Assembly (NCBI GenBank): GCA_021732145.1
Contig: JAKFVN010000033.1
Coordinates: 1-42,512 of the forward strand
Direction: 5' to 3'
DNA length: 42,512 nucleotides
From: Alphaproteobacteria bacterium
Lineage (GTDB): Bacteria; Pseudomonadota; Alphaproteobacteria; UBA9219; RGZA01
The translations under genes were made by a program, and so were the position numbers. Of this stretch, positions 1,750 through 27,876 are shown piece after piece; the first letter of the stretch is position 1; each line of letters begins with the position of its first letter. The notes below the pieces were generated by a model. It worked only from the letters and a program-made list of their open reading frames with translations, did not search any database and had not been told where the DNA came from.

Positions 1750-2736
1750 ATGAAGGTTTTAATCACAGGTGCGACGGGGTTTGTGGGCGCAGCCGTGGCC
1801 CGGCACTTTTTAAAAGCAGGGCACGAGGTGCGCTGCCTGGTGCGCCCCGGCAGCGATCGCCGAAACGTGTTAGACCTGCATTCCGAACTGGTGGAGGGCC
1901 GCCTTGAGGATGAGGCATCGCTTATCAATGCGGTAAAAGGCTGCGAAGGGTTGCTGCATGTGGCGGCGGATTACCGCATTTGGGTTCCAAAGCCCAAGGA
2001 AATGTATCAGGCCAATGTGGTAGGGACTGGCATGCTGATGGAGGCGGCGCTCAAGGCGGGCGTGAAGCGCATTGTGTACACCAGCTCCGTTGCAACGCTC
2101 GGCCATAACAAGGACGGCACACCCGCTGATGAAGATACGCCCGTCACCGAAAGCGACATGATTGGCGTTTACAAGCATTCCAAATTCCTGGCGGAAGATG
2201 TTGTTCGTAAAATGATTATCGAGCAAAAACTTCCATGCGTAATTGTGAACCCATCCACACCAATTGGTCAGCGCGATATTAAGCCAACGCCAACCGGCCG
2301 CATTATTGTGGATAGCGTGCGTGGCCGCATTCCTGCGTATTTAGATACCGGTTTGAATGTGGTGCATGTGGATGATGTGGCCAATGGGCATGTGCTGGCC
2401 TTCCAAAAAGGCAAGATTGGCCAACGTTATATTCTGGGCGGCGAAAACCTGTCGCTGGAACAAATTCTGGGCATGATTGCCGTGGAAGCAGGCTTTAACC
2501 CGCCGCGCATTAAATTGCCGCGCGATGCATTATTCCCCATTGCCTATACGATGCAGGCCATTGGCCGCATTACCGGCATTGAACCGATGCTGACCGTGGA
2601 TGCGCTGAAAATGGCGGCCAAGAGAATGTATTTCAGCAGCAAGAAGGCGGAAGTGCAGCTGGGCTATACCCATCGCCCGGCGCGCGAAGCCATCCATGAT
2701 GCAACCTTATGGTTTAAGTCAAATGGCTATTGCTAA
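1750..2736 (+). CDS. hpnA: Hopanoid-associated NAD(P)-dependent sugar epimerase HpnA
   Basis: Extended short-chain dehydrogenase of 328 aa, cytosolic. The Rossmann glycine motif TGATGFVG is at residues 6-13, the catalytic Ser/Tyr/Lys set is visible as TSS and YKHSK, and the C-terminal half is a substrate-binding domain of normal size. HpnA proteins are found beside squalene genes in hopanoid clusters and are thought to act on a sugar or polyol side chain; the reaction has not been established. It is the first gene of the hpnA-C-D-E operon. Its last 14 bases overlap the start of hpnC, which supports translational coupling. The start is ATG at 1750, 46 bp from the divergent fur start. The name rests on both sequence type and context. 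Confidence 0.88.
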   Translation: MKVLITGATGFVGAAVARHFLKAGHEVRCLVRPGSDRRNVLDLHSELVEGRLEDEASLINAVKGCEGLLHVAADYRIWVPKPKEMYQANVVGTGMLMEAALKAGVKRIVYTSSVATLGHNKDGTPADEDTPVTESDMIGVYKHSKFLAEDVVRKMIIEQKLPCVIVNPSTPIGQRDIKPTPTGRIIVDSVRGRIPAYLDTGLNVVHVDDVANGHVLAFQKGKIGQRYILGGENLSLEQILGMIAVEAGFNPPRIKLPRDALFPIAYTMQAIGRITGIEPMLTVDALKMAAKRMYFSSKKAEVQLGYTHRPAREAIHDATLWFKSNGYC

Positions 2737-3547
2737 GCCGCTTGAAAAGAATAAAAACACGGAAAACTTCCCGGTGGGGTCGTTTTTGCTGGCGGCGCAT
2801 TTGCGCGGGCATATTCATGCTTATTATAACTGGGCGCGCGCGGCGGATGATATTGGCGATGACCCGTTGATGGATGCGGATGAAAAAATCAAACGTCTGA
2901 CACGGTTTGAAGAATGTTTAAATGGTAATGGAACCGATGTTGCGGTGGCGCTGACACTGCGCATCAGCATGCAGCAGACGAATATCTCATTCGCACATGC
3001 ACTCGATTTAATCCGCGCGTTTAAGCAAGACGCCACAAAGCGCCGTTATATGAATTGGGACGAATTGCTGGATTATTGCCGTTATTCGGCATCGCCCGTG
3101 GGCCGTTATGTATTGGCGCTGCATGGCATTGGCGAACAGGCATGGCCATCGAATGATGCGCTGTGCACCGTGCTGCAAATCATCAACCATATTCAGGATT
3201 GCGCGGATGACTACCGCGAGGTGGATCGCGTTTATATCCCGCTGGATGATATGGAGAAAACGGGAACGAATCCCGGTGATTTATCCAAGGCGAAGTCATC
3301 TGAGGCGCTTCGCAAGGTGCTGGATATCATGCTGGAACGGTTAAAGCCAATGATGGTTACGGCACGTGATTTGCCGCGCAATGTGCCAAATATCCGTTTA
3401 AAGCTGGAAACGTCGATTATTCATGCATTGGCAGAAAGCCTGATGAAGGTGCTGGAAAAACGCGACCCGCTTTGTGATAATGTGAAACTATCCAAGCCCG
3501 CCATTCTCATGGCTATTTTCAACGGTATTGCCCGCGCCTTTTTCTGA
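2723..3547 (+). CDS. hpnC: Hydroxysqualene synthase HpnC
   Basis: Squalene/phytoene-synthase fold protein, 274 aa from the ATG at 2723. In the three-step bacterial route HpnD makes presqualene diphosphate from two farnesyl diphosphates, HpnC converts it to hydroxysqualene and HpnE reduces that to squalene. The first aspartate-rich motif DDIGDD is at residues 42-47 and the second, NHIQDCADDYRE, lies about two thirds of the way along near residue 155; both bind magnesium-diphosphate in this family. A start 27 bases upstream (2696) is possible but adds an unlikely N-terminus, so 2723 is preferred. Its TGA overlaps the hpnD ATG by one base. Confidence 0.9.
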   Translation: MAIAKPLEKNKNTENFPVGSFLLAAHLRGHIHAYYNWARAADDIGDDPLMDADEKIKRLTRFEECLNGNGTDVAVALTLRISMQQTNISFAHALDLIRAFKQDATKRRYMNWDELLDYCRYSASPVGRYVLALHGIGEQAWPSNDALCTVLQIINHIQDCADDYREVDRVYIPLDDMEKTGTNPGDLSKAKSSEALRKVLDIMLERLKPMMVTARDLPRNVPNIRLKLETSIIHALAESLMKVLEKRDPLCDNVKLSKPAILMAIFNGIARAFF

Positions 3548-4440
3548 TGACAAACGATGCACCTGAAGTATTGCCGGTAAACGAAATTATTATTTCGCCG
3601 TTACTTGATGCAAAAGACGCTGATGCGGTTCTGGATCACGTGAAGAATTCCGGCAGCTCGTTCCTGCTGGGCATGATGGCGCTGCCGCATGAACGACGCA
3701 TGGGCATGTTTGGGCTTTATGCGTTTTGCCGCGTGGTCGATGATATCGCCGATAGCGAATTGCCAGCGCCGGAACGCCTTAGCATGCTGCAAGAATGGCG
3801 CGTGCATACGGCGAATTTATTTAAAGGGCAGGCCAGCCATCCGGTGATGGAATTGCTGATAGATCCCGTTAAAGAATTCCAACTGGTTGAAAAAGATTTC
3901 CTTTCCATCATTGAGGGCATGGAAATGGATGCGCAGCAGGTGATTGTTGCCCCCACATGGGATGAGCTGGACGCGTACTGCGATTGCGTGGCCAGCGCGG
4001 TTGGCCGTGTTTCGGTGCGCATTTTTGGCGAGCCCACCGAAAACGGCAGCGAAGTTGCGTATCATTTAGGGCGCGCATTGCAATTGACCAACATCCTTCG
4101 CGATATTGATGAAGATGCCTTGCGCGGACGGTTGTATTTGCCGCTGGAAGCGCTGGAAGAAGCCGGCATTAGCATTGACAGCCTTGCGCTGATTTTACAG
4201 CATGCGTCACTTGACCATGCGTGCCGCGCCGTTGCCCGCCGCGCGGTGGAGCATTTCAGCGCCGCCGATGAAGCGATGGAAAAATGTGACCGCAAGGCGA
4301 TGAAACCCGCGCGGCTGATGCGTGATTATTATGAAAAAATCCTTCGCGTATTGCTGGAAATGGGATGGGATTATCCGCGTCTGCGCGTGAGCCTTACAGC
4401 ATTCGAGAAAATCGGCATGCTTATTAAATCGTGGTTTTAA
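3547..4440 (+). CDS. hpnD: Presqualene diphosphate synthase HpnD
   Basis: Condenses two farnesyl diphosphates to presqualene diphosphate, the entry step to hopanoids; cytosolic or membrane-associated. The 297-aa protein has the classic phytoene/squalene synthase signatures: YAFCRVVDDIAD (residues 58-69, first Asp-rich motif) and QLTNILRDIDED (179-190, second Asp-rich motif), followed by GRLYLP. Length fits HpnD. The start codon overlaps the hpnC stop (TGATG) and the stop lies 3 bp before hpnE, so translation is likely coupled across the operon. The stronger match to trans-prenyl synthase motifs, compared with its neighbour, is why this gene is assigned HpnD and the previous one HpnC. Confidence 0.91.
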   Translation: MTNDAPEVLPVNEIIISPLLDAKDADAVLDHVKNSGSSFLLGMMALPHERRMGMFGLYAFCRVVDDIADSELPAPERLSMLQEWRVHTANLFKGQASHPVMELLIDPVKEFQLVEKDFLSIIEGMEMDAQQVIVAPTWDELDAYCDCVASAVGRVSVRIFGEPTENGSEVAYHLGRALQLTNILRDIDEDALRGRLYLPLEALEEAGISIDSLALILQHASLDHACRAVARRAVEHFSAADEAMEKCDRKAMKPARLMRDYYEKILRVLLEMGWDYPRLRVSLTAFEKIGMLIKSWF

Positions 4441-4443
4441 AAC

Positions 4444-5715
4444 ATGCCCGTTGGCACCATTCATATTGTTGGCGCAGGGCTTGCCGGGCTTTCAGCCGCA
4501 GTGCATTTAACCGCATCAGGGCATAAGGTTGTGCTGTATGAAGCGGGCCAGCATGCGGGCGGGCGTTGCCGTTCCTATCATGATAAGGAACTGGATTGCC
4601 TGATTGATAATGGCAATCACCTGATGTTGTCATGCAATGAAGCGGCGCTGTCGTATTTGATGATGATTGGCGCAGAAGATACGTTGCAGATTGCCAAAGG
4701 CGCGATTTTTCCATTTATGGAAATTGGAAGCGGCAAGCAATGGACGATTAAAATGGGGCAGGGGCGTTTCCCCGGTTGGGTATTTGATAAAAACGCGCGC
4801 GTTCCCGATACGAAGTGGACGGATTATCTGGAGGCGATGAAGCTGACATCGGCAGATCGCTGGTCGCATGTAAATGACTGCGTTGATAAGAAATCAGTTC
4901 TGTACAAACGTTTCTGGCAGCCACTTTGCGTTGCCATTATGAATACGCAGGCTGAAGAAGCATCTGCGCAGGTGTTTGGCAATGTGCTGCGTGAAGCTTT
5001 TGGCGCGGGTGGCATTGGCTGCAAGCCGGTGATTGTAAAGGAAGGCTTATCGCAAAGCTTTGTAGAGCCAGCCGAAGCTTATTTAAAAGAACGCGGTACA
5101 GCTATTCATTACGGCAAGCGCCTGCGCAGCATTGAAATGGAAGTAGATGAAATAAAGACGCTGCATTTCGTGGATCAGGATGTGGGCTTGGAACATCTGG
5201 ATTGGGTTATTCTCGCGCTGCCAGCATGGGTCATTAACGACCTGATGCCAACCGTGCCAACGCCGACAAGCTTCCGCAGCATTGTGAATGCGCATTTTAA
5301 AGTTGCTGTTCCGCCAAAAAGTGAAACAGGAATTCTGGGCGTAATCGGCGGCCATGTGGAATGGGTATTTGAAAAACCAAGCATGATTTCAACCACCACC
5401 AGCGCGGCGGAAAAGATTGTGGATTTATCCGCTGAAGAAATCGCCGCGCTGTTATGGGCGGATATCGCCAGGGTTTATGGGCTGAATGCGGAGGCCGTAC
5501 CGCCATACCGCATCGTAAAGGAAAAGCGCGCGACCTTTGCCGCAACCCCTGAAGAAATCATTCGCAGGCCTGCCATTGCGGCGCGCAATACCAACCTTGT
5601 GGTATGCGGCGATTGGACGAATACCGGCCTGCCATCAACCATTGAAGGCGCCATTCGTTCCGGCAGAAGCGCGGCCGAACAAATCATCCCGCCGCAAACG
5701 CTTGCCAAAATCTAA
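4444..5715 (+). CDS. hpnE: Hydroxysqualene reductase / FAD-dependent amine-oxidase-like HpnE
   Basis: Flavoprotein of 423 aa that performs the final reduction giving squalene. The N-terminus carries the dinucleotide-binding motif GAGLAGLSAAVHL followed about 20 residues later by YEAGQHAGGRC, the typical phytoene-desaturase/amine-oxidase FAD signature. The C-terminus has VCGDWTNTGLPSTIEGAIRSG, the second FAD contact of the family, although written here across two overlapping parts (VCGDWTNTGLPS, then TIEGAIRSG). It begins 3 bp after hpnD and closes the run of tightly packed hpn genes. An alternative reading as carotenoid desaturase is less likely given hpnC and hpnD immediately upstream. Confidence 0.9.
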   Translation: MPVGTIHIVGAGLAGLSAAVHLTASGHKVVLYEAGQHAGGRCRSYHDKELDCLIDNGNHLMLSCNEAALSYLMMIGAEDTLQIAKGAIFPFMEIGSGKQWTIKMGQGRFPGWVFDKNARVPDTKWTDYLEAMKLTSADRWSHVNDCVDKKSVLYKRFWQPLCVAIMNTQAEEASAQVFGNVLREAFGAGGIGCKPVIVKEGLSQSFVEPAEAYLKERGTAIHYGKRLRSIEMEVDEIKTLHFVDQDVGLEHLDWVILALPAWVINDLMPTVPTPTSFRSIVNAHFKVAVPPKSETGILGVIGGHVEWVFEKPSMISTTTSAAEKIVDLSAEEIAALLWADIARVYGLNAEAVPPYRIVKEKRATFAATPEEIIRRPAIAARNTNLVVCGDWTNTGLPSTIEGAIRSGRSAAEQIIPPQTLAKI

Positions 5716-6772: not shown

Positions 6773-7698
6773 TGCTTGCGCGCTGGTTTTTCCGCCGCAG
6801 GCTTTTCTTTTGGTAAATCAACCTTGCCCATGCGGTTATCGTAATACAGTGCGTTTACGTCGTTCAGCTTTTCAATCAGTAATTTTCCGGCTGATGCATT
6901 GCCTTTCAGATAATAATCAAAAAAGGCCAGGGTATAGCTGACGATGCTGGCATGGAAGGCCGGGGTCTTGTCCATCCACGCGAAATGGTCTGCGCCATCG
7001 AATATCACGAGGTATTTATCAGGATGGGTTTGCGCATAAACGCCGTCTGGCTTCTTTAAATCGGGCGTGACCAGATTATCGCGCGTGCCGCCCTGATACA
7101 TGATCGGCACGCTGATACTCCCAAGTGTCTTCTTATCCAGATAGGGCAGAACATGCGGTGAAAACGCTACAACTGCCTTTATATCGTGGGTTTTCCAGCT
7201 TTCCCACGCGCCGCCCATACCCATGGCGACGTAACCGCCAAGCGAATGCCCCATCAATCCCACATGCTCAAAATTAACATGCTTCAGGAACACATCGCTC
7301 TTCACCATTGCGCCGAGCAAGTCGTTGATGTCATCGCGGCGGTCGGCATAGGTTTTATCATCCCATTTATCGGGTTCCATGAATGGAGCGACAGGCTTCA
7401 TGTACGCGGCTTTGCGGTTGCCGCATGCGCTGTCTTTGTGATTAACCGCGGCTACCCAAAATCCATCCTGCGCCAGTGCCCGGGCCAGAAATTTAATGTC
7501 GGTTACGCAACTGGTGAATGCGTGGGAGAATACAACCAGCGGCGCTTTGCGGGCTGTTTCCGGTGACCAGTAATGGATTTTTTTGCCTTCCAGTTCGATA
7601 ATCTGCATTTCGCCAGGAAGGCCTTGGGCGAATGCCCTTGATAGAAAAAGGGCATTCAATGAAACGCAGCAGAGCAATAAGGCAATCAGCGTGCGCAT
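6769..7698 (-). CDS. Exported alpha/beta hydrolase (dienelactone hydrolase/chlorophyllase-like)
   Basis: Predicted serine hydrolase of 309 aa, substrate unknown. From the ATG at 7698 it begins with a signal peptide (MRTLIALLLCC, hydrophobic to about residue 18, AFAQ at 22-25, likely cleavage near here), so it should act in the periplasm. The nucleophile elbow GHSLGG is at 150-155 with Ser152; the catalytic His is probably in DGADHFAW near the C-terminus, and an Asp in QGGTRDNLV may complete the triad. The tail is rich in Lys, Pro and Ala. A longer reading starting at 7761 would overlap the upstream mgtC gene and put 21 residues before the signal peptide, so 7698, 13 bp after the mgtC stop, is preferred. 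Confidence 0.82.
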   Translation of the reverse strand: MRTLIALLLCCVSLNALFLSRAFAQGLPGEMQIIELEGKKIHYWSPETARKAPLVVFSHAFTSCVTDIKFLARALAQDGFWVAAVNHKDSACGNRKAAYMKPVAPFMEPDKWDDKTYADRRDDINDLLGAMVKSDVFLKHVNFEHVGLMGHSLGGYVAMGMGGAWESWKTHDIKAVVAFSPHVLPYLDKKTLGSISVPIMYQGGTRDNLVTPDLKKPDGVYAQTHPDKYLVIFDGADHFAWMDKTPAFHASIVSYTLAFFDYYLKGNASAGKLLIEKLNDVNALYYDNRMGKVDLPKEKPAAEKPARKH

Positions 7699-7711
7699 CA
7701 ATCGCCAAGCC

Positions 7712-8419
7712 TTAATCACCGGAAGGCACAATTTTGAATTCATGAACGCTTTCCATCGCAATTAAATGCTCGGCAAGACGCTTGACGGCAGAAAGATTTT
7801 TAGTGCGGATAATGGTGCGGTATTCGGCAATCTCCCCGTCATCGACAATATGGTAGCTGATATTGCCGATACTGAAGCTGTGGGATTTCAGCAATTTGCG
7901 CAATTCATCTTCCGGCATGCGGCTTTTGCGCGCAAAGCTGATATTGAAATGCACATAGCTGTGTTTTGGCATCCAGCGTTCCACGCGGTGAAACAGCGAA
8001 AGAACGCCAATGGTTCCAAATGTTGCTATGCTGGCGGGGAAATAAAGGCCGGCGCCAAATAAAATGCCAATTACGGCAGTTATCCAGATAGATGCAGCGG
8101 TGGTAAGGCCGCGCACCGTGAACCCTTCTTTATAGATAACGCCAGCGCCAAGAAAGCCGATGCCGGTCATAATGCCCTGCGCCATGCGCGTGGGGTCGAT
8201 TCTTATCATATTTTGGGATATGTCGCCCATCCATTCCAATTGATTGACGGTCACGACCATCAAGAGGCTGGATGCAAGGCAGACAAGCGTATGGGTACGA
8301 AACCCTGCCGGGCGGCCGTAATAGCTGCGCTCCAATCCAATGAGCCCGCCAGCCACCATTGCAAGGCCCAGATGGCTGATGATTTCGATGTTTTTAGGAG
8401 TGAGCATGGTATCAAGCAT
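7712..8419 (-). CDS. MgtC/SapB-family inner-membrane protein
   Basis: Membrane protein of 235 aa. The N-terminal half holds about four to five hydrophobic segments with the family signature GGLIGLERSYYGRPAGFRTH and GIGFLGAGVIYKEGFTVRGL, followed by a TTAASIW stretch, all typical of MgtC. The C-terminal third (from about residue 155) is a soluble ACT-like domain. MgtC proteins are linked to survival in low magnesium and inhibition of ATP synthase in intracellular bacteria; in free-living species the role is unclear. A start at 8407 (four residues later) is equally possible. It sits upstream of the hydrolase on the minus strand with a 13-bp gap, suggesting cotranscription. Confidence 0.88.
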   Translation of the reverse strand: MLDTMLTPKNIEIISHLGLAMVAGGLIGLERSYYGRPAGFRTHTLVCLASSLLMVVTVNQLEWMGDISQNMIRIDPTRMAQGIMTGIGFLGAGVIYKEGFTVRGLTTAASIWITAVIGILFGAGLYFPASIATFGTIGVLSLFHRVERWMPKHSYVHFNISFARKSRMPEDELRKLLKSHSFSIGNISYHIVDDGEIAEYRTIIRTKNLSAVKRLAEHLIAMESVHEFKIVPSGD

Positions 8420-8461
8420 CGGACAACATTAAACCTATAGCATCATACGGCAAGGATTCGT

Positions 8462-9667
8462 TTAAAGGTTATAGGCACGCAGGCTTAACAGCCGGAATTC
8501 CGATGGTTGCCATCTGGCATTAATGTTCTCCGCAACGCATTGAAAATGAGGTTCGGCTGCTGCATCTGCTTCGCGGACAAGCAAATGGATGATTTGCGGT
8601 TGCGGGCAGGCATGAATGCGCCGGCGCGTCGAAACACAGGTGTTCTTGGAATCCACAATTCCAACGCAGATTTCGCCTTTCAAAACCTCAACCATCAATT
8701 CTGCGACCCACTGCGTTTCCTTTTGCGCACCGGTGATGAAGCGAATGGCCATCGCCGCCGTGCGGGGGTGCGGGGTGGTGGTAACCACATGCTGCGGATT
8801 ATCGGGCGGCTGGGGGCAGGTCAGAATTTCGGTGGTCTTTATCGGGAAATCTTGCCCCAATTCATAAAATCCCGTGTCACGGTCATTGATGGGGTAATGG
8901 TCATGCGCGTAGGTGAATTGGAAGGACGGCTTGTCATCCGCAGCCAATGGCGTGCGCTTTAAAACCACGTTTTCCTTATCAAGTACATGGCCGCCGCGGT
9001 AACCCCGCGCCATCAACCATTCCATCAATGCCATGCTGTCGGTGTGGCGTTGATACAGCGCGGCGTTATTGAATTCACAGATTATGGTGGGGTTAAATGA
9101 TGCAAAGGTCTGCTGCGCGCCAATCAATACATCCAGCTCATAGCTATCGACATCAATTTTGATGCAATCGACGCGGCCAATGTTATTCTCTGCCACAAAG
9201 GCATCAAGCGTGGTGAAGGGATAAACGGATTTCTCCGCTTCCTCCCCCCAGATGCGGAAAATTCTGTCTTCCTTGGTTTCCACCTTGCTGCCAATTGCGG
9301 TGCGGTGAACATGAACGTTCGTGCATTTATTATGCGCCAGATTTTGTTCCAGCATATCGGCGGTGCTGGTGGGTTCAAACGCGTGAACGATGCCAGTGCT
9401 GGCTAATTTAGAAAACAAAATGCTGTAATAGCCAATATTGGCGCCAATATCGAATATCGTCCAATCGGGCTGGATATTCTGCGCGCACCATTGCTTTGTC
9501 TGCATTTCGCAATCCGCGAAATAGACTTCAAATTGCGGGTAATAGGCAACAAGTTCAATGGGCGCAAGCCCAGGGATTGGTGTTCGAATGGCCCTCGGGC
9601 TACTCAAACGCCTCTTCCCATGAACCTTGGGTCGCTGCTTTGGAGTATTCGGTTGCGCGCGCTTCAA
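8462..9667 (-). CDS. FkbM-family methyltransferase with C-terminal extension
   Basis: SAM-dependent methyltransferase of up to 401 aa. The SAM-binding motif IFDIGANIGYYSILF begins at about residue 71, followed by the acidic loop AFEPT and CIKIDVDSYELDVL, the FkbM hallmark in the middle. Residues from about 255 onward form an extension rich in His, Pro and Arg that I do not recognise. FkbM enzymes O-methylate sugars, polyketides or glycolipids, so an envelope glycan is a reasonable but unproven substrate. The ATG at 9667 puts the first 22 codons inside the 3' end of nrdB (68-bp overlap). The conserved domain begins at about residue 35, so the true start may be later, but no good in-frame ATG or GTG was seen nearer. 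Confidence 0.78.
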   Translation of the reverse strand: MKRAQPNTPKQRPKVHGKRRLSSPRAIRTPIPGLAPIELVAYYPQFEVYFADCEMQTKQWCAQNIQPDWTIFDIGANIGYYSILFSKLASTGIVHAFEPTSTADMLEQNLAHNKCTNVHVHRTAIGSKVETKEDRIFRIWGEEAEKSVYPFTTLDAFVAENNIGRVDCIKIDVDSYELDVLIGAQQTFASFNPTIICEFNNAALYQRHTDSMALMEWLMARGYRGGHVLDKENVVLKRTPLAADDKPSFQFTYAHDHYPINDRDTGFYELGQDFPIKTTEILTCPQPPDNPQHVVTTTPHPRTAAMAIRFITGAQKETQWVAELMVEVLKGEICVGIVDSKNTCVSTRRRIHACPQPQIIHLLVREADAAAEPHFQCVAENINARWQPSEFRLLSLRAYNL

Positions 9668-13041: not shown

Positions 13042-13364
13042 GTGCCTGTTCTCCTGACGTTAAATAGCGGTTTCGTAGAAAACCGCGTCCGAATCAAATC
13101 GGAAGGTTAAGTCTGCGGCAAAAGCAAAGAGCAACAAAGCTTTGTTTTTGCTATGATTTTGGATAGAATTTGGTGTGGTCTTTGTTCTGCCGGAGAAGAT
13201 TCCCTTCGCTTCGAACAGGGTCGCAAGCGCATTATTCAGGGGAAGTCCCCAGCTTTCTGCACAGCTCTGTTGAATGGTTGGGTCGCTATTTTTTAGTGGG
13301 TTTTTCAATGGTTTTCCTATGGGCAGAAGGCTTATTAGTCTTAGGGGCAGTTAAATCCTTAATT

Positions 13365-13373
13365 TTATCCACG
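13365..13373 (+). promoter_or_regulatory. DnaA box, one mismatch
   Basis: TTATCCACG differs from TTATCCACA only in the last base. It is 26 bp before a perfect box in the opposite orientation. Confidence 0.55.
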
Positions 13374-13390
13374 GGCTTGTACTAAATGAC

Positions 13391-13399
13391 TGTGGATAA
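13391..13399 (-). promoter_or_regulatory. DnaA box, perfect
   Basis: TGTGGATAA is the exact complement of the consensus TTATCCACA. With the box at 13365 it forms a head-to-head pair about 350 bp upstream of the nrdA start. DnaA is known to bind the nrdAB promoter in E. coli. Confidence 0.65.
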
Positions 13400-13700
13400 G
13401 TTCAAAACATACCACATCTTGTGCCCGAAGGAACGCATCATACCAAACATAGTCCCCCTGTCACCTGCTAAACACACCATTCCGCATACAGAAAAATACA
13501 GGAGTAATGGTAGAGGTCGTTTGATTTTGTTCAAAAAAAGGCAGACTCAAAATCCGAATTTCTTGTGGAAGAAACCAGGAAAACAAAAAAAGTAAAAAAC
13601 ACATATGGAAAGTGCTTGAAGATTTCCTGACATCGGTTGCGTTCAATAAATACCGATAGAATATTTATGGCTACGTGCGACAGCATGGGGAATGGTTCGA

Positions 13701-13772
13701 GAGTCGTTCTCCAGAATCTACCCGGAATCCATGAGCTTCATGATTCTGAGATAGGGCAGGTAGGGAAGATTC
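13701..13772. promoter_or_regulatory. Cluster of five GANTC (CcrM-type) methylation sites
   Basis: GANTC occurs at 13701, 13714, 13725, 13742 and 13768; two more follow at 13909 and 13925. Random expectation is about one per 256 bp, so five in 72 bp is a strong local excess. In many alphaproteobacteria GANTC is methylated by CcrM and read by GcrA at cell-cycle promoters and origins. Confidence 0.6.
13725..13746. repeat. Inverted repeat with GANTC at both ends
   Basis: Arms GAATC-C-ATGA and TCAT-GATTC around a GCT loop; one unpaired C in the left arm. Each outer end is a GANTC site. It lacks a T-run, so it is not a terminator; a protein-binding operator is more likely. Confidence 0.5.
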
Positions 13773-13820
13773 TCAATATCTTGGTTTGTTCTTCTATTTA
13801 ACGAAATATTAACCAAGTTG

Positions 13821-13868
13821 TTACAAGATGTGGCCACTAAATCATGTGGATAACTCTATATATAGTAG
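13821..13868. promoter_or_regulatory. Pair of NrdR-like boxes 32 bp apart
   Basis: The right box has core CTATATATAG (13856-13865), a perfect palindrome and a full match to the NrdR core CwATATATwG. The left box core CAAGATGTGG (13824-13833) matches 7 of 10. The start-to-start distance of 32 bp equals the three-turn spacing typical of paired NrdR boxes. NrdR is an ATP-cone repressor of ribonucleotide reductase genes. The pair is 780 bp from nrdA and 111-155 bp before a small plus-strand gene, so the target is uncertain. Confidence 0.55.
13845..13853 (-). promoter_or_regulatory. Perfect DnaA box between the NrdR-like boxes
   Basis: TGTGGATAA lies almost entirely in the 16-bp spacer between the two NrdR-like boxes, touching the right one. 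Competition or cooperation between DnaA and NrdR here would link replication initiation to nucleotide supply. Confidence 0.65.
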
Positions 13869-13978
13869 GTATAGAACAAAGGTAAAACAATGGCTTGGGG
13901 TGTTGATGGAATCGGGATCGACGGGATTCTGAAGGCCAGTACAAGAAGATAAAGAATAAACGTGGAAGGACAAAAACC

Positions 13979-14170
13979 ATGGATACAGATTTCAAATCAC
14001 TGGAAAAGCGCTACGGCACGTCGCTCGCCATGAAGATTTGCGAGGAAATCGCCAAAGCCGAACAGCGCCATTTCAACTATTACAACGCCAATCTTGCGCT
14101 GCGTTCGATGAAGCGCGTCTCTGATTATGATGTTGACCATCTGGATATGCCGCAAACCCGCGTTGCATAA
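13979..14170 (+). CDS. Unrecognised 63-residue protein
   Basis: I do not recognise this protein. It is hydrophilic, probably mostly helical (residues 5-45), charged, with one Cys and no signal peptide or membrane segment. The gene has a strong ribosome-binding site, GGAAGGA, 8 bases before ATG, and an 8-bp terminator stem that begins in its last codons. Its codons look like those of neighbouring genes. Upstream are the NrdR-like pair and a perfect DnaA box, so it may be a nucleotide- or replication-controlled small protein. Function unknown. Confidence 0.65.
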   Translation: MDTDFKSLEKRYGTSLAMKICEEIAKAEQRHFNYYNANLALRSMKRVSDYDVDHLDMPQTRVA

Positions 14171-14181
14171 CTGCGGGTTTT
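14154..14181 (+). terminator. Intrinsic terminator overlapping the small gene's stop codon
   Basis: Perfect 8-bp stem AAACCCGC (14154-14161) / GCGGGTTT (14173-14180) with an 11-base loop, followed by another T. The stop codon TAA (14168-14170) is in the loop. Confidence 0.7.
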
Positions 14182-14334
14182 CGATATCGAACCATTCAAA
14201 AAGTCTATTTTGAGTTCATTTTACCCAATAAAATCCACAATAAGTTAATATATTAATCTTTATAGCTTCTTTTTATATCCATTTTGATTACTTTTCTGTT
14301 GCTTTTTAAATCCGGTTCCATTACAAAACTGCTC

Positions 14335-14368
14335 GCACGGTGACTGATACTCGAAGCCGTGCTTTTTT
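14335..14368 (+). terminator. Intrinsic terminator
   Basis: Stem GCACGG (14335-14340) / CCGTGC (14357-14362), 16-base loop, then six T (14363-14368). There is no open frame just before it, so it would end a short RNA or a read-through transcript. Confidence 0.65.
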
Positions 14369-14385
14369 AGCTTTTAGATTCTGCG

Positions 14386-14504
14386 TTTGGGATGTGGTCC
14401 TGCTTAGACGCAATGATGAGTAGGACTTGTTTCCTTATTTATTTATCTATCCCAAAAGCAAAACTTTTATAACCCCGGTGGCGTTAGCCCCCGGGGATTT
14501 TTTT
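14386..14504 (+). ncRNA. Candidate structured small RNA ending in a terminator
   Basis: Between two terminators the plus strand can form a perfect 8-bp outer helix TTTGGGAT (14386-14393) / ATCCCAAA (14449-14456) enclosing a second helix GGTCCT (14396-14401) / AGGACT (14422-14427), then the terminator at 14473-14504. I match it to no known RNA family. A leader of prmC is the alternative, but the terminator would cut it off 50 bp before that gene. Confidence 0.4.
14473..14504 (+). terminator. Strong intrinsic terminator before prmC
   Basis: Stem CCCCGG (14473-14478) / CCGGGG (14491-14496), continued inside by GGC/GCC around a GTTA tetraloop with one mismatch, followed by A and seven T (14498-14504). 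Confidence 0.8.
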
Positions 14505-14553
14505 GTCCTGATTTTTTTTGTTTTATTCACGCGTTGCATGCTAACTCAAAGGC

Positions 14554-16617: not shown

Positions 16618-17811
16618 ATGTCAGTACCCCTACAGCAGCAAATCGACGTTGGTTCCTATATCATGGGCCAGCACATCAGCGCGTTCTTCAAGGGCAAGAA
16701 AGCACGCTACCCATTGGTGTTGATGCTGGAGCCATTGTTCCGTTGCAATCTTGCGTGCGCGGGCTGCGGTAAGATTGACTATCCGGATGCAATTTTAAAT
16801 CAACGTATTTCGGTGGAAGACTGCCTTGCCGCGGCTGATGAATGCGGTGCGCCGATTGTTGTATTGGCAGGCGGCGAGCCGTTATTGCACAAGGATGCAA
16901 AGGCGATTGTTGAAGGCCTGCTGGCCAAGGGCAAGTGGGTAACTTTATGTACCAATGCCCTGCTGCTTGAGAAAAAAATTGATCAATTCAAGCCGCATCC
17001 ACGCTTCAACTGGTCGGTGCATTTGGACGGCGCGAAGGAAGAGCATGATCGCAGCGTATGCCAGCAAGGCGTTTATGAAAAAGCCGTTGCCGCCATTAAA
17101 ATTGCGCAAGACAAAAACTTCCGCGTAAACATCAACGCAACCTTCTTTAAGGGTATCGCGCCAGAAAAAATTGCCAACTTCTTTGATGATGTAATGGCGC
17201 TGGGCGTGAATGCGATGACCATTTCACCAGGTTATGCGTATGAACGCGCGCCAGACCAAGAGCATTTCTTGAACCGCAAGGCGACGAAGGAATTGTTCCG
17301 CGATGTGTTCCGCATGGGCAGGGAACGCCAATCCCAAGGCAAGCAAAAATGGCGCTTCAGCCAATCCAGCTTGTTCATGGATTTCCTTGCAGGTAATCAG
17401 GAATATCATTGCACCCCGTGGGGCAACCCAACGCGCACCGTATTCGGTTGGCAGCGTCCTTGCTACCTCTTGGGCGAAGGCTACACCCAAACCTTCAAGC
17501 AATTGATGGACGAAACCGAATGGGATAAATACGGCACCGGTAATTACGAAAAATGCGCTGACTGCATGGTGCATTCCGGTTTTGAAGCGACCGCTGTGAT
17601 GGATTCCGTGAAGAACCCATTGAAGGCGTTGCAAGCTGCATTGCACGGCCCCAAGACCGAAGGCGATATGGCACCGGAAATTTCACTCGCCAACCAGCGC
17701 CCGGCTGAATACGTATTCAGCCGTCACGTTGAAAACCGCATGGCGAAGATTGAAGAAGATGCAAAGGCAAAGAACGCCGCTGTATCACGTTCCGCTGAAG
17801 CTGCTGAATAA
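16618..17811 (+). CDS. hpnH: Adenosyl-hopene transferase HpnH (radical SAM)
   Basis: Radical-SAM enzyme that joins the adenosyl group of SAM to hopene (diploptene), first step of extended hopanoid synthesis. The 397-aa protein has the cluster-binding motif CNLACAGC with Cys43, Cys47 and Cys50, then GGEP (SAM contact), and a C-terminal region with several Cys in CTPWG, RPCYLL and KCADCMVHSG, as in other HpnH proteins. The C-terminal 60 residues are Ala/Lys/Glu-rich and probably disordered. It begins 40 bp after ispH; the last base of its stop is directly followed by the convergent hpnG stop, so the two hopanoid genes abut tail to tail. Confidence 0.95.
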   Translation: MSVPLQQQIDVGSYIMGQHISAFFKGKKARYPLVLMLEPLFRCNLACAGCGKIDYPDAILNQRISVEDCLAAADECGAPIVVLAGGEPLLHKDAKAIVEGLLAKGKWVTLCTNALLLEKKIDQFKPHPRFNWSVHLDGAKEEHDRSVCQQGVYEKAVAAIKIAQDKNFRVNINATFFKGIAPEKIANFFDDVMALGVNAMTISPGYAYERAPDQEHFLNRKATKELFRDVFRMGRERQSQGKQKWRFSQSSLFMDFLAGNQEYHCTPWGNPTRTVFGWQRPCYLLGEGYTQTFKQLMDETEWDKYGTGNYEKCADCMVHSGFEATAVMDSVKNPLKALQAALHGPKTEGDMAPEISLANQRPAEYVFSRHVENRMAKIEEDAKAKNAAVSRSAEAAE

Positions 17812-18462
17812 TTAAAGTTTTGCTACAACTGCATCGAGTTGTTTGAGCGCAATTCCTGTGTGCTTGAACAGCTTCATCAATGCTGGAAGCTGCAACGGGT
17901 TGCGCAGCAGGCTTTTGTAAACCGCATTCATATTATTGGTGCCATCGGGGTTGATGCCGTTTAGCGCTGCATCCGGAAAACTATCATCCACGCTATCGCT
18001 CACGCCGCGTAACACTGCAAAGGGCAGGTTATGTTTGGTGGCAACTTCCGCGACCACATGGCTTTCCATATCGACAATCAGGCATGCGGTTTTAATGTGC
18101 AGCATCTTTTTTTCTTCCGGCGTGGGCACCAACACCGTGCTGCCATACACGCCGCCATCCAGTGCATCATTGGCCGCATTCCGCAGCCGTGAAGCCAGTT
18201 CCGTTTCGCATGGCCATTTCTGCCCGTCTTTTCCGGCGACATGGCTTGCAACAATAATGCTGTGGCTGCCTAAATCTGGCGCTAATGCGCCCGCAACACC
18301 AAAGCTGACCAGCGCTTTTGCGCCTTCGCGCACCAGCTTTTCCGCACGCTCAAACGCCAGCGCTTCCACTGCGCCGCTGCATGCCACGCGCTGCGTCAAT
18401 TTGTGCGCAACCGCCGCTTCCGCTTCGAACCCGCACAGAATGCCTATGGCCTGGTTGCTCAT
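17812..18462 (-). CDS. hpnG: Hopanoid-associated nucleoside phosphorylase HpnG
   Basis: Removes adenine from adenosylhopane to give ribosylhopane (phosphorylated). The 216-aa protein is of the MTA/SAH nucleosidase-phosphorylase fold: VSFGVAGAL (phosphate/ribose region), VDMESHVVAEVA (purine-site Met-Glu motif) and GVSDSVDD (catalytic Asp). It follows the CNNM/CorC-like gene with a 4-bp ATGA overlap on the minus strand. Being opposite hpnH but touching it, the gene completes the side-chain step started by HpnH. Confidence 0.9.
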   Translation of the reverse strand: MSNQAIGILCGFEAEAAVAHKLTQRVACSGAVEALAFERAEKLVREGAKALVSFGVAGALAPDLGSHSIIVASHVAGKDGQKWPCETELASRLRNAANDALDGGVYGSTVLVPTPEEKKMLHIKTACLIVDMESHVVAEVATKHNLPFAVLRGVSDSVDDSFPDAALNGINPDGTNNMNAVYKSLLRNPLQLPALMKLFKHTGIALKQLDAVVAKL

Positions 18463-19733
18463 GTTGTTGTTTTCCGTATTCTGATTTTAACTTTGGAAAT
18501 CTGTTTTTGCTTGCGCGCCAATACCTGAAACGCGAAGGGGTCGAAGTAGATGGTTTCACCGGGTTCGGGAATGCGCTCCGCCACATGAATAATAAAGCCC
18601 GCGATGGTGGTCGCATTTTCATCCGATAATTCCCAGCCCATTTCGCGGTTAAGCTCGCGAATGGGGAAGCGGCCATCAATGATAATGCTGCCGTCAGGTT
18701 GTGCTTTGGGCACGGCCAGCGCATTAAACTGGCCCTTATCATAATGGCCGACGATTTCTTCCAGAATATCAGCAAGGGTCAGCATGCCCTGCAATACGCC
18801 GTATTCATCCACCACAAACGCCACGCGCACATCGCGCGCGCGAAAGCTGCTAAGCTGGTCAAGTAAACCGGTGGTATTTGGAATGAACCACGGCGCGGCG
18901 ACGATATTGGCGATATCCATGCCCGCGGTGTTGCCTTCGCGAACAGCAAGCTCGCTAATCAATTTGCGCGCATCAATCACGCCGACAATGTCTTCGGGTG
19001 TTTTGCCCCATAGCGGCACTTGGCTATGCTTGGCATCCAGCAATGCTTTAATCAGCGTATCAGCGGGCAGGGCGGATGAAACGCTAATCATATCGCGGCG
19101 GTGGGTCATCACATCCGCGACGGTCATTTCTGTTAAATCCACCACGGCGTGCAACATGCTGGCGGTGGCTTGGCTTGAACCAAGCACTTCGGCATGCATA
19201 TCAATCACGCCGCGAATTTCCTGTTCGGCGTTTTCTTCAATCTCGTCATTGCCCTGATTGATTTTAAATGGCTTGAGGATGAAGAGAATAATGCCACGGC
19301 ATAGCACCGTCACCGGAACCAAAATCCACACCAGCAATTGCATAAAGGGCGCGAGGAAAAGCGCGGTGCCATCAGGGCGGCGGATGGCAATCGTCTTTGG
19401 CAAAATTTCAACAAACAGCACGATGAGTACCGACATGATGGCGGTCGCATAAGCAAGACCCGCTTCGCCAAACGCTTCAATCATCGCGGCGGTAGTCAGC
19501 GCGGATGAAACAATATTGATGACATTATAGCCAACCAGAATAGCGCCAATCAGCAAATCGGGCTGGCGCATAATGCGGTTCACCAGCGCGGCGCGTTTGC
19601 TGCCTTCGTTTTCCAGTGTGAGCATGCGTGGCTTGGAGCAGGACGTAAACGCTGTTTCAGCAGCCGAGAGCAGGGCAGAGACAAACAGCAACAGGGCAAT
19701 CGCAAGCGAGAGCATCAAATAATCGTGGGTCAT
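18459..19733 (-). CDS. CNNM/CorC-type transporter-associated protein (DUF21-CBS-CorC_HlyC)
   Basis: Membrane protein of 424 aa. The N-terminus has the DUF21/CNNM region with about four membrane segments (residues 5-160; SAAETAFTSCSKPRML is the family signature), followed by two CBS domains (about 200-330; VADVMTHRRDM, VDARKLI, VDEYGVLQGMLTLADI) and a C-terminal CorC/HlyC domain (about 345-420) with DGRFPIRELN. CNNM proteins are linked to magnesium or cobalt export; the older 'hemolysin' label is misleading. It begins the minus-strand pair with hpnG. The function in metal homeostasis is inferred from the family. Confidence 0.88.
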   Translation of the reverse strand: MTHDYLMLSLAIALLLFVSALLSAAETAFTSCSKPRMLTLENEGSKRAALVNRIMRQPDLLIGAILVGYNVINIVSSALTTAAMIEAFGEAGLAYATAIMSVLIVLFVEILPKTIAIRRPDGTALFLAPFMQLLVWILVPVTVLCRGIILFILKPFKINQGNDEIEENAEQEIRGVIDMHAEVLGSSQATASMLHAVVDLTEMTVADVMTHRRDMISVSSALPADTLIKALLDAKHSQVPLWGKTPEDIVGVIDARKLISELAVREGNTAGMDIANIVAAPWFIPNTTGLLDQLSSFRARDVRVAFVVDEYGVLQGMLTLADILEEIVGHYDKGQFNALAVPKAQPDGSIIIDGRFPIRELNREMGWELSDENATTIAGFIIHVAERIPEPGETIYFDPFAFQVLARKQKQISKVKIRIRKTTT

Positions 19734-19864: not shown

Positions 19865-21859
19865 ATGGCGGGAATGAGCATGGTTACGAAGGTTTTGCGT
19901 AAGGAAAAGAATCTGGCCACTGAGGCGGGCTTCAGCATCAATGATGTTGCAAGGGGCGTGGATAGTGCGCGCGATGCCTTGCTGAAATTACAAAAGGCGG
20001 ATGGCCACTGGGCATTCCCACTCGAAGCCGATGCGACCATTCCTGCCGAATATATTTTGCTGCAACATTTTCTGGATGAGATTAACCAGCCCTTGCATGA
20101 CAAGATGGCGGTTTATTTGCGCGGCGGTCAATCAAGCGTGCATGATGGCTGGGCGCTGTTTCATGGCGGCGATTTCAATATCAGCACCAGCGTAAAAGCC
20201 TATTTTGCATTAAAGGCTGCTGGTGACAGCGCGGATGCGCCGCACATGATCCGCGGACGCGATGCGATTTTGAAGCATGGCGGCATTGCCAAATGCAATG
20301 TGTTCACGCGCATTCAATTGGCGTTGTTTAGCATTTTGCCGTGGCATGCCGTACCGGTGATGCCGATTGAAATTATGATTTTGCCGCGCTGGTTTCCATT
20401 TCATTTATAAAAGGTTGCCTATTGGTCGCGCACCGTGATTGTGCCGTTGCTGGTGCTGATGACGCTGAAGCCCCAGGCAGTAAACCCAAAGAAAATCACG
20501 CTGGATGAATTGTTTGTTGCCCCGCCCGAAACGGTGAAGGATTGGAATTCGAATGAAACCAAATCCATTCTCAACCCCATCTTCCGCGCGCTGGATGATG
20601 TGCTGCGTTTCTTTGAACCCTATATGCCAAAGGGCCTGCGCAAATACTCCATCGATAAGGCGTTGGCATTCGTCAAGGAACGCTTGAACGGCGAAGATGG
20701 TTTGGGCGCCATTTATCCCGCGATGGCGAATGTGGTGATGATGTATGACGCGTTGGGCTACGATAAAAACTATCCAGACCGTGTCATTGCGACCAAGGCC
20801 GTTGATAATCTGGTGATTGAAGAAAAAACCAGCGCCTATTGCCAGCCATGCGTCTCACCCATTTGGGATACAGGGTTGATGGCGCATGCCATGCTGGAAG
20901 ATGGCAGTCCGGATGCAATTGCTGCAACCCAACGCGCCGCCGAATGGCTAAAGAAACTTCAGGTATTAGATGTGGTGGGCGATTGGGCAAATTGGCGCCC
21001 CAATGTGCGCCCCGGGGGTTGGGCATTCCAATATAACAATGCGCATTATCCCGATTTGGATGACACCGCCGTGGTTGTGATGGCGATGGATAGATTGGAC
21101 AGCCCCAAATACCGCGAAGCGATTGAACGCGGCACGGAATGGGTGCTGGGGCTGCAAAGCAAGAATGGTGGCTGGGGCGCGTTTGATGCCGATAATACCT
21201 ATTACTATCTGAACCACATTCCATTTGCGGATCACGGCGCGTTGCTTGACCCGCCAAGCGCCGACGTGACCGCGCGTTGCTTGGGTATGCTGGCGCAGCT
21301 TGGCTATAAAATTGACCATCCCGCTGTGGCTGCCAGCCTTGCATATCTTCGCCGTGAACAGGAAAAAGAAGGCTGCTGGTTTGGCCGCTGGGGCACCAAT
21401 TATATTTATGGCACATGGTCTGTTTTGAATGCGCTGAACGCGATTGGTATCGGCAAGAATGATTTGATGGTGCGCCGTGCCATCAACTGGCTCAACTCCA
21501 AGCAGCGCGAAGATGGCGGCTGGGGTGAAGATGGCCAATCCTATTTCGCGGGCGAGCCAAAGGGCGAGGGCAAGGTATCAACGCCCGCGCAAACCGCATG
21601 GGCTATTCTTGGCCTGATGGCCTTTGGTGAGATTGATAGCGATGCTGTGAATAAGGGCATGAAGTACCTGCTGAGCACACAGCAAACAGAAGGCAAGAAC
21701 GAAGGCCTGTGGAACGAGGATTATTATACGGCTGTAGGCTTCCCGAAGGTGTTTTACCTGCGCTATCACGGCTATAAGGCGTTCTTCCCGCAATGGGCGC
21801 TGGCACGTTATAAGGCATTGAAGAACAGCAATGCATCGCAAACCATGTTTGGAATGTAA
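19865..21859 (+). pseudogene. shc: Squalene-hopene cyclase, interrupted by one in-frame TAA
   Basis: Would cyclise squalene to hopene at the membrane. Reading one frame from ATG 19865 to 21859 gives 664 codons, a normal length for Shc, with a single TAA at codon 182 (20408-20410). Both sides are typical: before it ILPRWFPFHL, after it KVAYWSRTVIVPLL. Catalytic DLDD is at about codons 397-400 (YPDLDDTAVV); QW repeats are seen as DGHWAFPLEAD, NGGWGAFDADN, DGGWGEDGQSY and FFPQWALARY. The reading frame is unchanged across the stop, so it is a nonsense codon, not a frameshift. Downstream reinitiation at GTG 20435 has no good ribosome-binding site. Alternatives: sequencing error, read-through, or a truly lost cyclase. 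The ATG at 19880 is another possible start. Confidence 0.88.
20408..20410 (+). other. In-frame TAA at shc codon 182
   Basis: TTA-TAA-AAG separates the two otherwise intact halves of shc. A single base change from AAA, GAA, CAA, TCA, TTA, TAT or TAC would give TAA. Other genes here (hpnA, hpnH, ispH) end normally at TAA, so the codon has not been reassigned generally. Confidence 0.85.
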
Positions 21860-22977
21860 TGCTCGCCACGCAACTTCAAAGTGATACGCAAGAAGACCGC
21901 AATGCAGCTTATGCCGCATTAGCCAAAACGCATGGCTTGCTGTCAGTAAAAGTTACGCCGTTTTATCAAAAGAAGATTGATGAGGAAGTTGCGGCGCTTG
22001 GTCATCACCAAGGGCCGCTGGCGCGCACCGTGTACCCAAGCAGCGAACGTCTCGCGCTTCGCGCACCCGGCGAAGTTGCCGATTGGGTCGATGACCGCAG
22101 CAATATGGAAGATGATGCGAAGGATATTTTTATTCAAAAATATCCCGACCGCGTATTGTTCACGCCCACATCAACCTGCGCGGCGCATTGCCTCTACTGC
22201 TTCCGTCAGGATGTATTGAGCCAGCAAAAAACCACTGCGCGCCCAAGCGTTGAACAGCAATGCGATGTGCTAATCAAGCATTTAAAATCGCACCCGGAAG
22301 TGCAGGAAGTGATTTTATCGGGCGGTGACCCGCTGACGCTGCCATTGAACGAATTGCAGATTATTTTTGATAAAATCGCGTCTGTAAAAACGGTGATGAA
22401 TATCCGCATTCACACGCGTGTGCCGATTTTCTTGCCAACCGCATTAAAGAATGACGATAAGCTTGCGCTGTTCGCCAAACACAATGTGCGCATGATTTTG
22501 CATTCCGTGCATCCCTACGAAATCTGTGATGAGGTTGCGACGTTGCTGGAACGCATGCACGCGCATGGCATCCGTTTGTATAATCACTTCCCGATGCTGC
22601 GTCATGTGAACGACCATGCCGATGTGTTGTTGGAGCTGATGCAAAAACTGGAAGCGCATCACGTCAAAACACTTTCCATCTATGTGCCAGAGCCGATTAA
22701 TTTTTCCGCCGTATATCGCATTTCTTATGACCGCATGTGCGCAATCATTGATGAAGTGAATGTACGCGGTGCCGCATGGCTGAACAGTTTCCGGTTTTGT
22801 TTGGATAGCCCCTTTGGTAAAGTGCGCCGCGAAAACCTAAAAATGCGTGACCGGGTAAGCCAGCATCTGGTCTTTATGCGCGAAGGCCAGCGCATTGATT
22901 ACCCTGACTTTCCGGCCCAGATGGATAAGCCCGGCGATATAAAAACCATGCTATGGAAGATGAAGAAGGCTGCCTAA
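21859..22977 (+). CDS. KamA-family radical SAM protein (lysine 2,3-aminomutase-like)
   Basis: Radical-SAM protein of 372 aa with the cluster motif CAAHCLYC (Cys107, Cys111, Cys114), then ILSGGDPLTLP typical of lysine 2,3-aminomutase/EpmB relatives. The lysine in LDSPFGKVR near the C-terminus is in the position of the PLP-binding lysine of KamA, although the glycine run found in classical enzymes is missing. The start overlaps the shc stop in TAATG, so translation should be coupled. EpmB (EF-P lysine modification) is an alternative, but no epmA or efp gene is present in the window. A role in modifying hopanoid side chains is possible from context only. Confidence 0.85.
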   Translation: MLATQLQSDTQEDRNAAYAALAKTHGLLSVKVTPFYQKKIDEEVAALGHHQGPLARTVYPSSERLALRAPGEVADWVDDRSNMEDDAKDIFIQKYPDRVLFTPTSTCAAHCLYCFRQDVLSQQKTTARPSVEQQCDVLIKHLKSHPEVQEVILSGGDPLTLPLNELQIIFDKIASVKTVMNIRIHTRVPIFLPTALKNDDKLALFAKHNVRMILHSVHPYEICDEVATLLERMHAHGIRLYNHFPMLRHVNDHADVLLELMQKLEAHHVKTLSIYVPEPINFSAVYRISYDRMCAIIDEVNVRGAAWLNSFRFCLDSPFGKVRRENLKMRDRVSQHLVFMREGQRIDYPDFPAQMDKPGDIKTMLWKMKKAA

Positions 22978-27184: not shown

Positions 27185-27231
27185 TCAATGCCAGCCGTTT
27201 TTGATTGAACCTTTCCAAGGAGTGTTTGCAC

Positions 27232-27876
27232 ATGAGTTTTTCCGGGCGTTTATTGAGTCTTGCATTCGTGATGTTGCTGGCGATGGCTCCTGCGGCGAAT
27301 GCCGCTGTTCAGGATGTGGCGATACGCCCGCCTGCTCCAGCCAAGCAGGGCGCAAGCCAAGTGATTAGCAACTTCTACAACACGCTGACGGTTGTGATGA
27401 AAGAAGGCAATACACTTGGGTTTGAAGGCCGCGCGCGCAAACTGGATGCGGCAATTACCAAAACCTTCAGCGCCAGCGATATGACCCGCGTATCCTATGG
27501 CCCATCATGGGGCCAGGCATCTCCTGATCAAAAAGGCCAGCTGACCCGCGCATTCCACAATTTCACGGTTGCGAATTACGCCAGCCAGTTCAAAGCCTAT
27601 GACGGCGAAGAATTCAAAGTAATTGGTGAAAAGGCTGCGCCAAACCCACAACAGCGCATCGTTGAAACCACGTTAAAGAGTGGCGCAGATGTCCATCATC
27701 TGAACTACCTGATGATGCAAACCAGCCAGGGCTGGAAAGTGGCCGATGTGTTTGTGGATGGCGCGATTAGCGAAATGGCGACGCGCCGTTCTGAATTTGG
27801 CTCCGTTATCCGTGCCAGCGGCCCCAACGGCTTGCTGAACGTACTTGAGCAAAAGAGCAGGCAACTCGCTCAATAA
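27232..27876 (+). CDS. hpnM: HpnM-like periplasmic protein (MlaC/Ttg2D family)
   Basis: Exported lipid-carrier-type protein, 214 aa from ATG 27232, which has an excellent AAGGAG ribosome-binding site. The signal peptide is clear (MSFSGRLLSLAFVMLLAM, cleavage after ANA near residue 24). The mature part has the MlaC/Tol-Ttg2 fold signature: FYNTLTVVMKEGN, RVSYGPSWGQASPDQKGQL and GWKVADVFVDGAISEM. HpnM is found with hopanoid genes and is thought to carry lipids between membranes; this one is next to dxs, in a window full of hpn genes. It could instead be a phospholipid MlaC, but no mla neighbours are present. Confidence 0.85.
   Translation: MSFSGRLLSLAFVMLLAMAPAANAAVQDVAIRPPAPAKQGASQVISNFYNTLTVVMKEGNTLGFEGRARKLDAAITKTFSASDMTRVSYGPSWGQASPDQKGQLTRAFHNFTVANYASQFKAYDGEEFKVIGEKAAPNPQQRIVETTLKSGADVHHLNYLMMQTSQGWKVADVFVDGAISEMATRRSEFGSVIRASGPNGLLNVLEQKSRQLAQ

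What the first reader, a model, noticed from the sequence alone, without database searches (positions are those of the whole stretch)
20395..20440. Intact squalene-hopene cyclase reading frame with a single in-frame TAA
Codon 182 of 664 is TAA while both sides are well conserved and in the same frame, with the catalytic DxDD and QW motifs intact. The rest of the hopanoid pathway is intact, so loss of the central cyclase would be surprising. Possibilities: sequencing or assembly error, recent null mutation, stop-codon read-through, or two-piece cyclase by reinitiation at GTG 20435.
Basis: partly seen in the sequence, partly recalled or inferred. Interest (0 to 1): 0.75.

Follow-up and report, generated by a model that had tools for sequence, protein, structure and literature searches.

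The report
Hopanoid cyclase gene with one stop
The only copy of the gene for the hopanoid-making enzyme in this bacterium is cut by a single stop codon that none of its relatives share, so it is most likely a very recent broken allele (or a base error), and there is no sign of an unusual way of reading the stop.

Summary
The squalene-hopene cyclase (shc/hpnF) frame runs from 19865 to 21859, and codon 182 (20408-20410) is TAA. Both sides are a well-conserved cyclase, the only copy in the 2.09 Mb genome. Nothing found points to recoding. The two same-genus genomes have sense codons there (TCA Ser, GCC Ala), and all 105 homologues compared have a residue. The site is variable, one base from the nearest relative. 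TAA is the commonest terminator in the window (17 of 26). No UUA-anticodon tRNA was found among 37, release factors are intact, and no RNA structure follows the stop. The two-piece idea is poor: the break lies inside the N-terminal barrel, and restart at GTG 20435 would leave residues 182-190 out of both products, including invariant Y186, W187 and R189 (W187 aligns with W169 of the Alicyclobacillus enzyme). The rest of the gene is undecayed: all 111 invariant columns kept, no frameshift, dN/dS about 0.05. It is the only single-stop interruption found in 342 kb scanned. Verdict: a recent nonsense allele, or less likely a base error, in an ordinary shc. Reads or a second genome of the species would decide. 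Low interest.

The parts
19865..21859 (+). squalene-hopene cyclase gene (shc/hpnF), read through one in-frame TAA; 664 codons before the final stop
   Evidence: translation; 93% identical to G002 and 86% to G001 over the whole length; Pfam PF13249 + PF13243; TIGR01507 for the part after the stop
19865..20410 (+). upstream open part, 181 codons (first half of SQHop_cyclase_N), ending in TAA
20408..20410 (+). in-frame TAA (codon 182), at the position of Tyr164 of the A. acidocaldarius enzyme; TCA in the nearest relative
20411..21859 (+). downstream open part, 482 codons (second half of N domain plus whole C domain with DxDD)
20435..20437 (+). GTG proposed as restart; AAAAGG lies about 20 nt upstream, too far for a usual Shine-Dalgarno spacing; a start here leaves out residues 182-190
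21686..21706 (+). region of a window-specific 12-base in-frame insertion that lengthens the last QW motif linker by 4 residues
   Evidence: calibrated
21859..22977 (+). KamA/EpmB-like radical SAM gene whose ATG overlaps the shc stop (TAATG); translation coupled to shc could suffer from the early stop (inference)
1750..5715 (+). hpnA, hpnC, hpnD, hpnE (squalene supply), intact
   Evidence: intact against G002
16618..18462 (.). hpnH (+) and hpnG (-), intact
27205..27876 (+). hpnM (MlaC family), intact

Best explanation
An ordinary, single-copy squalene-hopene cyclase gene that carries one real and very recent nonsense substitution, seen in one genome. Translation stops after 181 residues. The fragment lacks the whole catalytic domain, so as written the cell that supplied this sequence makes no cyclase and would be left with squalene instead of hopanoids. 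The allele is probably young or transient and has not had time to decay. Shown: the stop, the single copy, its absence in relatives and the undecayed remainder. Inferred: that the base call is right and that the product is inactive.
For: Sole cyclase in the genome. Same-genus relatives have TCA (Ser) and GCC (Ala) at the codon, and none of 105 homologues has a stop there; no internal stop is reported in any other order genome matched. It is the only stop-interrupted gene among the 33 window genes checked, 31 of which have a counterpart in G002, and the only single-stop interruption with coding arms of at least 60 codons found in the window plus 300 kb of the same genome; the other candidates without a stronger competing frame are adjacent genes with an ATG 1-7 codons after the stop. 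The rest is undecayed: 0 of 111 invariant columns changed, dN/dS 0.048 against G002, and no faster evolution on this branch than in neighbouring genes (z = 0.44). A high base-error rate is therefore not seen. Public bacterial genomes hold many such short-lived in-frame stops (PMC7918605).
Against: No reads or second genome of the species were available, so an error cannot be excluded. The cyclase is kept in 32 of 33 genomes of the order, so loss should be selected against. There is no clear further decay to confirm loss of function.
Confidence: 0.6

Rival explanations
1. A single base error or consensus/strain-mixture artefact in a draft assembly; the living population has an intact cyclase.
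For: One base from the codon of the nearest relative; the rest of the gene is under strong purifying selection with all invariant residues kept. The hpn gene set in the window is otherwise intact. The genome is a 54-contig draft.
Against: No other gene among the window's checked genes is interrupted and none was seen in 300 kb of other stretches, so base errors are not frequent. The C-terminal insertion is a second oddity, though a weak one.
Confidence: 0.3
2. Read-through or suppression of the TAA, so that some full-length cyclase is made.
For: The downstream half is fully conserved, and position 182 tolerates many residues (S, N, D, Y, A, F, L, W, E, T), so almost any inserted residue could work.
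Against: The stop is not conserved in any relative. No UUA-anticodon tRNA was found among 37, though that list is not complete. RF2 is over its cut-off and a second release-factor gene is open. TAA is the main terminator in the window (17 of 26). There is no RNA structure after the stop (z = +1.06). Conservation of the rest is equally expected for a young stop.
Confidence: 0.06
3. Two-piece cyclase: residues 1-181 plus a second chain restarted at GTG 20435.
For: In-frame GTG shortly after the stop; each half still matches Pfam.
Against: Residues 182-190 would be in neither chain, including Y186, W187 and R189, each invariant in 105 of 105 homologues; W187 aligns with W169 of the A. acidocaldarius cyclase, an active-site residue (own knowledge). 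The break is inside the N-terminal barrel, not between domains. No Shine-Dalgarno at normal spacing.
Confidence: 0.02

Closest known systems
Squalene-hopene cyclase (TIGR01507; Pfam PF13249/PF13243; A. acidocaldarius structure 1gsz)
   Same: Full-length alignment, DxDD motif, invariant residues, hpn gene neighbourhood
   Different: One in-frame TAA at codon 182; one 4-residue insertion in the last QW motif
Short-lived in-frame stop codons in bacterial genes (Belinky et al. 2021, PMC7918605)
   Same: Isolated nonsense codon, undecayed flanks, not conserved in relatives
   Different: Nothing evident; here in a single genome only, so the flank comparison within a species is missing
shc with three in-frame stops in G168 (L175)
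   Same: Single-copy shc interrupted by nonsense codons without frameshift
   Different: Three stops of three kinds rather than one; a different family, 71% G+C; another gene nearby is also interrupted

Membership tests
Squalene-hopene cyclase (TIGR01507) | Score above the curated cut-off | tested here: met
   542.7 bits against 431.1 for the part after the stop alone
Squalene-hopene cyclase (TIGR01507) | DxDD catalytic motif and QW motifs | tested here: met
   DLDDT at 397-401; QW-type motifs at 43, 431, 499, 547 and 606, the last with a lengthened linker
Squalene-hopene cyclase (TIGR01507) | One uninterrupted chain with both barrels | tested here: not met
   TAA at codon 182 under the standard code
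Squalene-hopene cyclase (TIGR01507) | Cyclises squalene to hopene | not testable with these tools
   needs enzyme or lipid assay
Programmed stop-codon recoding / read-through | Stop conserved at the same place in relatives | tested here: not met
   sense codon in all 105 homologues compared, G001 and G002 included
Programmed stop-codon recoding / read-through | Suppressor tRNA or recoding RNA element | tested here: inconclusive
   no UUA anticodon among 37 tRNAs found, but Leu-UAA, Ile-GAU and Ala-UGC were also not seen, so the list is incomplete; no stable structure; no Rfam element there
Pseudogene | Loss of constraint beyond the stop (further lesions, raised dN/dS) | tested here: not met
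   no frameshift, invariant columns kept, dN/dS 0.048, branch not faster than neighbours; the insertion is weak evidence only. A very young pseudogene would look the same
Base error | Reads disagree with the consensus | not testable with these tools
   no reads held

The most novel reading that the evidence does not exclude
The TAA is real and read through at a useful level in this species, so hopanoid synthesis is throttled by an in-frame stop in a single-copy membrane-lipid gene.
Probability: 0.05. Interest if true: 0.6.

Novelty: already known. Interest (0 to 1): 0.13.

Why it matters
If the stop is real, this is a natural loss of hopanoid synthesis inside a lineage that otherwise keeps it, and a caution against inferring hopanoid production from the presence of hpn genes. 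If it is an error, it matters only as an annotation note. Neither changes what is known about cyclases or stop codons.

Tried and rejected
Recoded genome: rejected, TAA ends 17 of 26 window genes, and no other conserved gene looked at is interrupted. Suppressor tRNA: none among 37 found, list not complete. Downstream recoding structure: none. Split enzyme: rejected on the missing invariant stretch. Second intact cyclase elsewhere in the genome: none. Relaxed selection on the window branch: SHC ratio not different from neighbours (z = 0.44); the other hopanoid genes show a slight excess (z = 1.55), not significant. The C-terminal insertion as proof of decay: rejected, since rare core insertions occur in 9 of 105 homologues. 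A first version of the conserved-column script failed and was redone. Literature search for Micavibrionales and hopanoids found nothing.

Full report
Observation. The window is the whole of contig 20 of a 54-contig, 2.09 Mb draft genome. The frame from ATG 19865 reads TAA at 20408-20410 (codon 182) and is then open to 21859. Read through, it is a full squalene-hopene cyclase: Pfam PF13249 is cut at profile position 149/151 by the stop and PF13243 is whole; the part after the stop alone scores 542.7 bits against a cut-off of 431.1 for TIGR01507. It is the only cyclase found in the genome.

Relatives. The genus holds two other genomes, the family two more. G002 (93% identical protein) has TCA at this codon, G001 GCC, the two family members TAC and TTC. 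Of 33 genomes in the order, 32 have the gene and none but this one has a stop reported inside its match. In 105 homologues the position is S 38, N 24, D 23, Y 8, and a few others, never a stop. So the stop is private to this genome, one base from its nearest relative, and lies at a tolerant site. Among named public genomes the relatives include a MAG labelled Micavibrio sp., which suggests, without proving, that the organism belongs near Micavibrionales in the Alphaproteobacteria.

State of the rest of the gene. All 111 columns invariant in the homologues are kept, and deviations at nearly invariant columns are about as few as in G001 and G002. dN/dS against G002 is 0.048, in the range of neighbouring genes, and on the window's own branch the ratio of amino-acid to silent changes (17/66 against 11/82 in G002) is not raised beyond that of the neighbours. 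The one further peculiarity is a 4-residue in-frame insertion in the last QW motif, absent from all 105 homologues; but 9 of the 105 have some rare insertion of their own in the core, so it cannot be used as proof of decay. If the stop is real it is recent.

Is the genome full of such stops? No. Of 33 window genes checked, none but shc is interrupted; two have no counterpart in the G002 stretch fetched and so were judged by their own open frame only. In the window plus 300 kb of other stretches, a scan for single in-frame stops with coding arms of at least 60 codons left shc as the only interruption. The other candidates free of a stronger competing frame were neighbouring genes in the same frame, with an ATG 1-7 codons after the stop; this was judged from the start position, not by a domain search for each. 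TAA is the commonest terminator (17 of 26). This argues against recoding and against a high base-error rate, but one error in 342 kb cannot be excluded.

Read-through. No tRNA with anticodon UUA is among the 37 found; Leu-UAA, Ile-GAU and Ala-UGC were also missing from that list, so it is not exhaustive. RF2 is intact and a second release-factor gene is open. The RNA after the stop folds less well than shuffles (z +1.06), and Rfam sees nothing there. Belinky et al. (PMC7918605) report that in-frame stops in bacterial genes are common and mostly short-lived; they infer frequent read-through from low dN/dS, but low dN/dS is equally expected for a stop too young to have left a trace (inference).

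Two-piece enzyme. The stop falls at the position of Tyr164 of the A. acidocaldarius enzyme, inside the N-terminal barrel (domain layout from own knowledge). A chain restarted at GTG 20435 begins at residue 191, so residues 182-190 would be in neither product. These include Y186, W187 and R189, invariant in 105 of 105. W187 aligns with Trp169, an active-site residue in that enzyme (own knowledge). The nearest purine-rich stretch, AAAAGG, is about 20 bases upstream of the GTG, too far for normal use.

Context. hpnA, C, D, E, H, G and M, dxs and ispH are all intact in the window. An early stop in shc would leave the cell with squalene. The following KamA-like gene starts within the shc stop (TAATG), so it may also lose translational coupling (inference). 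shc appears essential in Bradyrhizobium diazoefficiens, but deletion strains of Rhodopseudomonas palustris and Burkholderia cenocepacia are viable (PMC11005386), and a hopanoid-free Methylobacterium is described (PMC5358736, title and start of abstract only). In a sample of 289 genomes of the class, 78 have a cyclase-like match; one other genome, G168, has a sole shc with three in-frame stops. So interruption of shc by nonsense codons has at least one further case among public genomes, though G168 could itself hold errors.

Verdict. A recent nonsense allele of an ordinary shc is the best reading (0.6), base error the main rival (0.3), read-through unlikely (0.06), two-piece enzyme very unlikely (0.02). 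These weights are judgement. Reads would settle the first two.

Noticed in passing
L175 (G168:C14), 7558-9486: The sole shc of another alphaproteobacterial genome, about 60% identical to the G002 cyclase, has three in-frame stops (TAG, TAA, TGA) and no frameshift.
   Followed up: partly
L175, 1523-3838: A gene with a DMFA2_C domain near that shc is also split by one in-frame TAA, with the domain continuing directly after it; the genome may hold more interrupted genes.
   Followed up: partly
window 21859-22977: KamA/EpmB-like radical SAM gene matches several aminomutase families but stays well below every curated cut-off; it follows shc directly here and in G001 and G002.
   Followed up: no
G000, whole genome: Among 37 tRNAs found, Leu-UAA, Ile-GAU and Ala-UGC were not seen, perhaps because the draft lacks rRNA operons or the search missed them.
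   Followed up: no
window 18459-19733: The CNNM/CorC-like gene divergent from shc shows one of the strongest excesses of amino-acid changes on the window branch among 17 genes (17/39 against 5/57).
   Followed up: no
window 13042-14553: About 1.5 kb with no ORF of 100 codons and no Rfam match, much of it conserved at the DNA level with G002.
   Followed up: no
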